38,100 nt of DNA from Leptotrichia sp. oral taxon 879 str. F0557. Its GTDB lineage: Bacteria > Fusobacteriota > Fusobacteriia > Fusobacteriales > Leptotrichiaceae. Numbering within the stretch: the stretch's first letter is position 1; every line of letters begins with the position of its first letter. Shown here piece by piece: positions 21,792-38,100 of the stretch. A model generated the notes under the pieces. That model worked only from the letters and a program-made list of their open reading frames with translations. It ran no database searches and had not been told where the DNA came from. The position numbers and the translations under genes were made by a program. The stretch lies in the NCBI RefSeq assembly GCF_000469385.1, contig NZ_KI271335.1, forward strand, positions 30,134 through 68,233, read 5' to 3'.

Positions 21792-21943
21792 GCCTCCTTA
21801 AAAAAATTTATAATAAAGAATGGACAACCTAAGGAGGCAGGTTACTTACATTACTGCGTCTGGACTACCAACCAGAACTGTGTTTTTATCTTTATTTTAT
21901 TTATCGACTTTTTACTTTTTTATCTTGCAACAAGAAGTAAAAA
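21792..21943 (-). promoter_or_regulatory. yjdF riboswitch with switchable anti-Shine-Dalgarno
   Basis: On the minus strand the leader contains, in order: a TTTTTACTT/AAGTAAAAA stem (21909-21943), a TCTGG/CCAGA stem (21859-21876), and a hairpin AACCT-GCCTCCTT-AGGTT (21826-21843). The loop bases GCCTCCTTA (21830-21838) are exactly complementary to TAAGGAGGC (21792-21800), the ribosome site of yjdF. The hairpin and the anti-SD pairing compete, so ligand binding can switch translation. The gene identity and this layout support the known yjdF riboswitch class. I could not compare with the class consensus directly. Confidence 0.8.
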
Positions 21944-37582: not shown

Positions 37583-37610
37583 TTGACTTTTTTAACTTTC
37601 GTGCTATAAT
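37583..37610 (+). promoter_or_regulatory. strong promoter facing an ORF-free region
   Basis: TTGACT (37583-37588), 16-bp spacer and perfect TATAAT (37605-37610). Transcription would begin near 37617. No protein gene follows. A 17-bp perfect palindrome (37628-37644, GTTAATTA-A-TAATTAAC) lies just after the start and might be an operator. Confidence 0.7.
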
Positions 37611-37655
37611 AATAATGTCAAAAGGAAGTTAATTAATAATTAACAACCATTTGGC

Positions 37656-37758
37656 TATATAGGGAAATTTGTTTTTTTGAATAAAAGACCATTTTATGAG
37701 ATAGCCCAAAAAAACATTATTTATTTAATTTCCCTATATAAAAAGGGCTATCTCATAA
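37656..37758. repeat. two interleaved perfect 14-bp inverted repeats
   Basis: Arm A TATATAGGGAAATT (37656-37669) matches A' AATTTCCCTATATA (37727-37740); arm B TTATGAGATAGCCC (37694-37707) matches B' GGGCTATCTCATAA (37745-37758). The order A-B-A'-B' means both stems cannot form as simple nested hairpins. They form either a pseudoknot or alternative structures. Confidence 0.9.
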
Positions 37759-37999
37759 TCCACAATTTATCTATTTTACAAGGTTTATAAGTATAGCCTT
37801 TTCTAATCAAATCTAATTCATTTAGATTTTTTTTATTACATAAATTTTTTTACATTTTAACTTATCCTAACCCCATTAAAAAAATAGTATTAAAATTCTA
37901 TAATAATTAATTTTATAGCTTTATTAAAAAAATCAAATCTAATTTTTTAAGTATCCATCTTAAAGACTTTTGGTAATTTATTTATATATTTTTTAACGT

Positions 38000-38027
38000 A
38001 AGGGCATCAGACACCATGCCCTTTTTC
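38000..38027 (+). terminator. rho-independent terminator at the right edge
   Basis: AAGGGCAT (38000-38007) pairs with ATGCCCTT (38016-38023), an 8-base loop and then TTTC, so T5 overall from 38022. It favours plus-strand transcripts; on the minus strand no T-run follows. Confidence 0.75.
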
Positions 38028-38100
38028 GCAATAGCAGTTATTTTAACATGTATAACTGGTTACTATTTAGAGATAATGGCGAAATGTTCTACGAACTACC
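38028..38100. other. window edge, too short to assign
   Basis: A plus-strand frame from ATG at 38048 reads MYNWLLFRDNGEMFYELP to the edge, without a ribosome site. A minus-strand frame enters from the edge and reads FVEHFAIISK before a stop. Either could be the edge of a gene beyond the window. Confidence 0.25.

What the first reader, a model, noticed from the sequence alone, without database searches (positions are those of the whole stretch)
37583..38027. Orphan promoter-to-terminator unit with interleaved perfect inverted repeats
A strong promoter and a strong terminator frame ~410 nt without a gene. Inside are two perfect 14-bp inverted repeats in order A-B-A'-B'. Their perfect matching, in otherwise drifting AT-rich DNA, points to selection or recent origin. 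As RNA they can form an H-type pseudoknot or two alternative hairpins, and B also matches GGCTAT in arm A's flank (37653-37658), offering a third pairing. It could be a regulatory RNA or a switch. As DNA, B/B' also look like insertion-element ends.
Basis: partly seen in the sequence, partly recalled or inferred. Interest (0 to 1): 0.7.

Follow-up and report, generated by a model that had tools for sequence, protein, structure and literature searches.

The report
Leptotrichia-specific orphan structured small RNA gene
Between the genes hpt and rplT, most Leptotrichia species carry a small gene that very probably makes a structured, untranslated RNA of about 190-220 bases, with a nearly unchanging 73-base core; no family in the RNA database matches it and its job is unknown.

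Summary
The promoter and both perfect 14-bp inverted repeats (order A-B-A'-B') are real. The unit is conserved as a single-copy gene in 10 of 13 species of its genus (Leptotrichia), always between hpt and rplT, and is absent from all 86 other genomes searched in the order. Three congeners have hpt and rplT only 107-130 bp apart, without it. Conservation runs from the -35 box to about 37825. The core 37686-37758 is 99.4% identical, against 65% for the adjacent spacer and 72% for hpt third codon positions. A hairpin starting at the predicted +1 shows compensatory changes, which supports an RNA. No Rfam family matches and 6S lies elsewhere. The 'strong terminator' at 38000-38027 is not part of the unit: it belongs to a dispersed repeat (about 24 further copies) and is missing from orthologues. 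Likely 3' ends are a B':C hairpin (37745-37798) and an A/T hairpin with a T run (37809-37834). I read it as a clade-specific, stand-alone, presumably trans-acting small RNA. Its invariant B...B' stem-loop either forms a pseudoknot with A or alternates with an A:A'/B':C fold. Pseudoknot versus switch, and the target, could not be decided. It is not an insertion element and not coding.

The parts
37583..37610 (+). sigma-70 promoter TTGACT-16-TATAAT with extended -10 (TG)
   Evidence: 26 of 34 columns of 37583-37616 invariant in 10 species
37617..37655 (+). P1: two-part hairpin starting at the predicted +1 (G37617)
   Evidence: 6 of 15 pairs with compensatory changes, covariation score 0.354 against 0.170 +/- 0.026 in shuffles, 0/500 reach it
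37656..37669 (+). arm A (TATATAGGGAAATT)
   Evidence: pairs with A' in all species, varying only through G-U or gaps
37670..37679 (+). TGTTTTTTTG, extends A:A' by pairing with 37707-37716
   Evidence: (I22)
37694..37707 (+). arm B (TTATGAGATAGCCC), invariant in 10 species
37708..37726 (+). invariant A/U-rich linker AAAAAAACATTATTTATTT between B and A' (extra A or CA inserted in two species)
37727..37740 (+). arm A' (AATTTCCCTATATA), essentially invariant, lies in the loop of the B:B' hairpin
37745..37758 (+). arm B' (GGGCTATCTCATAA), invariant; can pair with B (14 bp) or with C
37782..37798 (+). arm C (GGTTTATAAGTATAGCC), pairs imperfectly with 37745-37761 (P3), followed by TTTTCT: possible first terminator
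   Evidence: covariation of P3 no better than shuffles
37809..37834 (+). A/T-only hairpin AAATCTAA-TTCAT-TTAGATTT followed by T: possible second terminator, complete in most but not all orthologues
   Evidence: (about 24 further copies in the genome)

Best explanation
A stand-alone small RNA gene that arose within Leptotrichia. It is transcribed rightwards from 37617 and ends near 37803 or 37835 (about 190-220 nt). The RNA begins with a protective, covarying hairpin (P1) and carries an invariant 65-nt stem-loop (B:B' stem, 37-nt loop holding the C-rich A' segment UUUCCCUAU). The upstream arm A pairs with A' in the loop, giving a compact pseudoknot or, once arm C is made, an alternative fold (A:A' plus B':C) in which B is set free. 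I infer that it acts in trans, by presenting the invariant single-stranded segments to partner RNAs or to a protein, with the A/C arms masking or exposing them. Shown by sequence comparison: the gene, its conserved limits, P1, and that both 14-bp pairings are kept in all ten species. Inferred: transcription, 3' end, which fold dominates, trans action. The confidence given is for the orphan trans-acting RNA gene; for the detailed masking/exposing mechanism it is about 0.35.
For: Single-copy orthologue in 10 of 13 same-genus genomes, always between hpt and rplT. Covariance-model search: 10 of 96 genomes of the order, all in this genus. Core 37686-37758 99.4% mean pairwise identity against 65% for the hpt-promoter spacer and 72% at hpt third codon positions. 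Promoter conserved with the RNA. P1 covariation. Indels inside the core and changed start codons in some species argue against coding. No Rfam match; 6S is found elsewhere, at C63. Nested folding of growing transcripts gives A:A', then B:B' in all ten species, then A:A' again in eight.
Against: No transcript data. A:A' and B:B' hardly vary, so covariation cannot test them, and P3 covariation is no better than shuffled. No target signal: B-like and A-like sites in the genome are repeats, sites inside probable coding sequence, or at control frequency, and SD-like AGGGAAA sites are as common in congeners without the RNA. The nested folding model cannot represent the pseudoknot.
Confidence: 0.72

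Rival explanations
1. The RNA is a true two-state switch: B:B' (with A' exposed in the loop) alternates with A:A' plus B':C, the latter acting as terminator or as target-masking fold, driven by a ligand, a protein or the pace of transcription.
For: Thermodynamic folding of growing transcripts passes A, B, A in 8 of 10 species and stops at B in the other 2. B' is complementary to both B and C. Which fold wins depends on transcript length.
Against: C is not held constant and its pairing shows no covariation beyond shuffles; two species end in the other state; there is no downstream gene to control; a pseudoknot would satisfy both pairings at once without switching.
Confidence: 0.3
2. The inverted repeats are ends of an insertion element or MITE, and the RNA unit is a mobile element.
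For: B/B' and A/A' are perfect inverted repeats; three congeners lack the unit at the same site; related terminator-like TTTTGAGACAGCCC sites occur in the genome.
Against: One copy per genome in 10 species at the same locus; no match in phage or plasmid collections or viral contigs; promoter and P1, outside the repeats, are conserved with it; the repeats are interleaved, not terminal.
Confidence: 0.03
3. The stretch encodes a small peptide (TTG-start frame NKRPFYEIAQKNIIYLISLYKKGYLII...) and the conservation is coding.
For: A frame of up to about 40 codons covers the core in several species.
Against: No ATG and no ribosome-binding site; the start is lost in L016 and L019 and the frame is shifted by A-run indels in L016 and L018; third codon positions are as invariant as the others.
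Confidence: 0.03
4. A cis-acting element of the neighbours: antisense to the rplT 3' end or a bidirectional terminator between convergent units.
For: It lies convergent to rplT in all carriers, and P3 also has a T run on the minus strand (GCCCTTTTT).
Against: The distance to rplT varies widely (hpt-rplT spacing 477-1227 bp among carriers, larger in the window) through inserted sequence; rplT has its own A/T hairpin next to its stop codon (visible in the sequences printed); a terminator needs neither a conserved promoter nor P1.
Confidence: 0.08

Closest known systems
6S RNA (Rfam RF00013)
   Same: Stand-alone structured RNA of about 190 nt with its own promoter
   Different: This genome's 6S is elsewhere (C63:107815-108017); the unit does not match the model
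Trans-acting base-pairing small RNAs of low-GC bacteria and Fusobacteriota (e.g. FoxJ of Fusobacterium nucleatum, PMC11005410)
   Same: Intergenic small RNA with its own promoter and invariant segments that could pair with targets (resemblance from general knowledge)
   Different: No relative found outside Leptotrichia; no target found; much longer perfect internal pairings; sigma-70-like promoter, whereas FoxJ is sigma-E-dependent by its paper's title
Leptotrichia riboswitch candidates manA-II and fhsA (PMC11109978)
   Same: Narrowly distributed structured RNAs of Leptotrichia, fhsA with a possible pseudoknot competing with a terminator
   Different: Those lie in leaders of genes; this one has no gene downstream. 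That survey selected GC-rich intergenic regions, so an A/T-rich one such as this could be passed over; its supplements were not read

Membership tests
6S RNA | match to the RF00013 covariance model | tested here: not met
   searches find no match in the unit; one search places 6S at another locus
any described RNA family (Rfam 15) | match above gathering score | tested here: not met
   only a sub-threshold minus-strand rhtB match, 24.6 bits against 55
intergenic bacterial small RNA gene | own promoter | tested here: met
   consensus match and conservation in 10 species; activity itself not tested
intergenic bacterial small RNA gene | conserved RNA structure | tested here: met
   P1 covariation; the other helices are kept but are not supported by covariation
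intergenic bacterial small RNA gene | intrinsic terminator | tested here: inconclusive
   P3 plus a short U run in all; A/T hairpin with T run in most; consensus scan finds none
intergenic bacterial small RNA gene | transcript detected | not testable with these tools
   no expression data
riboswitch / leader attenuator | gene downstream on the same strand | tested here: not met
   next gene is rplT on the opposite strand in all carriers
MITE / insertion element | several copies or variable sites | tested here: not met
   one copy per genome, same locus

The most novel reading that the evidence does not exclude
A young, genus-born RNA whose invariant 65-nt stem-loop is refolded during its own synthesis (A:A', then B:B', then A:A' plus B':C), so that one transcript offers different single-stranded segments in time or to different partners: a self-timed RNA switch without a downstream gene.
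Probability: 0.15. Interest if true: 0.7.

Novelty: new member of a known kind. Interest (0 to 1): 0.48.

Why it matters
It adds an undescribed, strongly constrained RNA gene in a phylum whose RNA biology is hardly mapped. The near-invariance of 73 nt among species that differ at more than a quarter of hpt third codon positions implies an important and sequence-specific partner. The three congeners that lack it at the same site make a natural gain/loss comparison.

Tried and rejected
Target search by near-complements of B and A: no enrichment, or repeats and sites inside probable coding sequence. SD-seed pattern TAGGGAAA-N-ATG in 13 genomes: as frequent in non-carriers. Sites L021, L022 and L028, weakly similar in other species, look like unrelated terminators or promoters. 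Viral-contig match L051 is an unrelated GC-rich hairpin. Phage and plasmid collections: nothing. Literature: no report of this RNA found. Coding and mobile-element readings rejected (see rivals).

Full report
Origin. The window is G000:C55:30134-68233, a 2.4-Mb genome. Its closest relative in the set, G003, has a contig of the same length (2,261,073) as Leptotrichia hongkongensis JMUB5056, NZ_AP019846.1, and its hpt protein is 99% identical. So the genome is a Leptotrichia close to L. hongkongensis.

Observation. The promoter and the two perfect 14-bp inverted repeats are present as described. Of 3000 dinucleotide shuffles of the 445-nt region, 31 contain any perfect 14-bp inverted repeat within 120 nt and 2 contain one with at least four G/C per arm. 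The real region has two interleaved ones, one with six G/C per arm.

Limits. Orthologues align from the promoter to about 37825 in ten species of the genus. After that similarity collapses (37826-37900: 59% identity). Even in the nearest relative, identical over 241 nt, the match stops at the same place. The region 37869-38027 and onward is instead similar to many places in the same genome; about 24 further copies of the 38000-38027 hairpin part are listed. Better 3'-end candidates are the B':C hairpin (37745-37798, followed by TTTTCT) and the A/T hairpin 37809-37834. The second is damaged in L011, L013 and L018.

Distribution. A covariance model of 37617-37803 finds exactly one copy in each of 10 genomes and none in the other 86 genomes of the order, including 3 congeners. 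In all carriers it lies between hpt (divergent) and rplT (convergent). In the three non-carriers hpt and rplT are neighbours with only 107-130 bp between them and no such RNA. hpt identity to the window is 90-99% in carriers and 86-88% in non-carriers, so a single gain in the carrier clade is the simplest history. That is an inference from identities; no tree was built.

Constraint. Mean pairwise identity: hpt-promoter spacer 65%, hpt third codon positions 72%, promoter 88%, P1 78%, arm A 93%, core 37686-37758 99.4% (B, linker, A' and B' 100% in ungapped columns), P3 loop 67%, arm C 82%. The longest invariant run in the hpt coding sequence is 20 nt, against 32 in the RNA region. The invariant block coincides with the B...B' stem-loop plus eight bases upstream, while its two alternative partners A and C may vary. 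That points to the B...B' stem-loop as the functional core and to a constraint beyond pairing alone (inference).

RNA evidence. P1 starts at the base expected for +1 and shows six pairs with compensatory change, 14 cells against 4.5 +/- 1.5 in shuffles, and it beats every slid register. A:A' and B:B' are kept in every sequence, but B:B' never varies and A:A' varies only to G-U or gaps, so neither is tested by covariation. P3 is kept in 94% of cells, but its covariation equals that of shuffles.

Fold. Nested folding of the full RNA favours P1, A:A' extended by U-A pairs, and B':C. In growing transcripts A:A' dominates at about 125 nt and B:B' at about 140-178 nt. A:A' returns once C is made in eight species; L018 and L019 stay with B:B'. 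The pseudoknot A:A' x B:B' cannot be represented by that program. A rough sum from the stem energies, with a textbook penalty of about 10 kcal/mol, places it within a few kcal/mol of the nested fold, so energies do not decide. Loop lengths of 24, 19 and 4 nt permit it sterically if the A:A' helix is limited to 14 bp (my geometric estimate).

Alternatives. Coding is unlikely: a TTG-started frame exists in several species, but start and frame are lost in others and third positions are invariant. A mobile element is unlikely (single copy, synteny, nothing in phage, plasmid or viral collections). A leader switch is not supported because no same-strand gene lies downstream. Described families: no Rfam match; 6S is elsewhere. 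A survey of structured RNAs in 50 genomes that included L. buccalis (PMC11109978) names Leptotrichia motifs in its main text only in gene leaders; it selected GC-rich intergenic regions, and its supplements were not read.

Verdict. The RNA gene is very likely real and undescribed in the sources searched, ordinary in kind (a genus-specific structured small RNA), and notable for its near-invariant core and interleaved perfect pairings. Function and dominant fold are open.

Noticed in passing
window 37869-38100, continuing in L009 to about 2800: Left end of a dispersed non-coding repeat (about 650 bp, imperfect inverted ends of about 135 bp at 74% identity, many copies of the GGGCATCAGACACCATGCCC hairpin in the genome), interrupted by a run of N in the assembly.
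   Followed up: partly
window 21804-21899, minus strand: azaaromatic (yjdF) riboswitch, 92.6 bits.
   Followed up: no
L056, L062, L063, L068 (G000 contigs C5, C28, C37, C79): Recurrent terminator-like hairpin ending TTTTGAGACAGCCC, one of several repeated terminator types in this genome; differs from arm B by two bases.
   Followed up: partly
window 37805-37825 and 37931-37951: The AATCAAATCTAATT motif at the second terminator is repeated 126 bp downstream (D2); L018 joins the RNA directly to sequence like that second copy, suggesting insertion or recombination at the 3' end of the RNA gene.
   Followed up: partly
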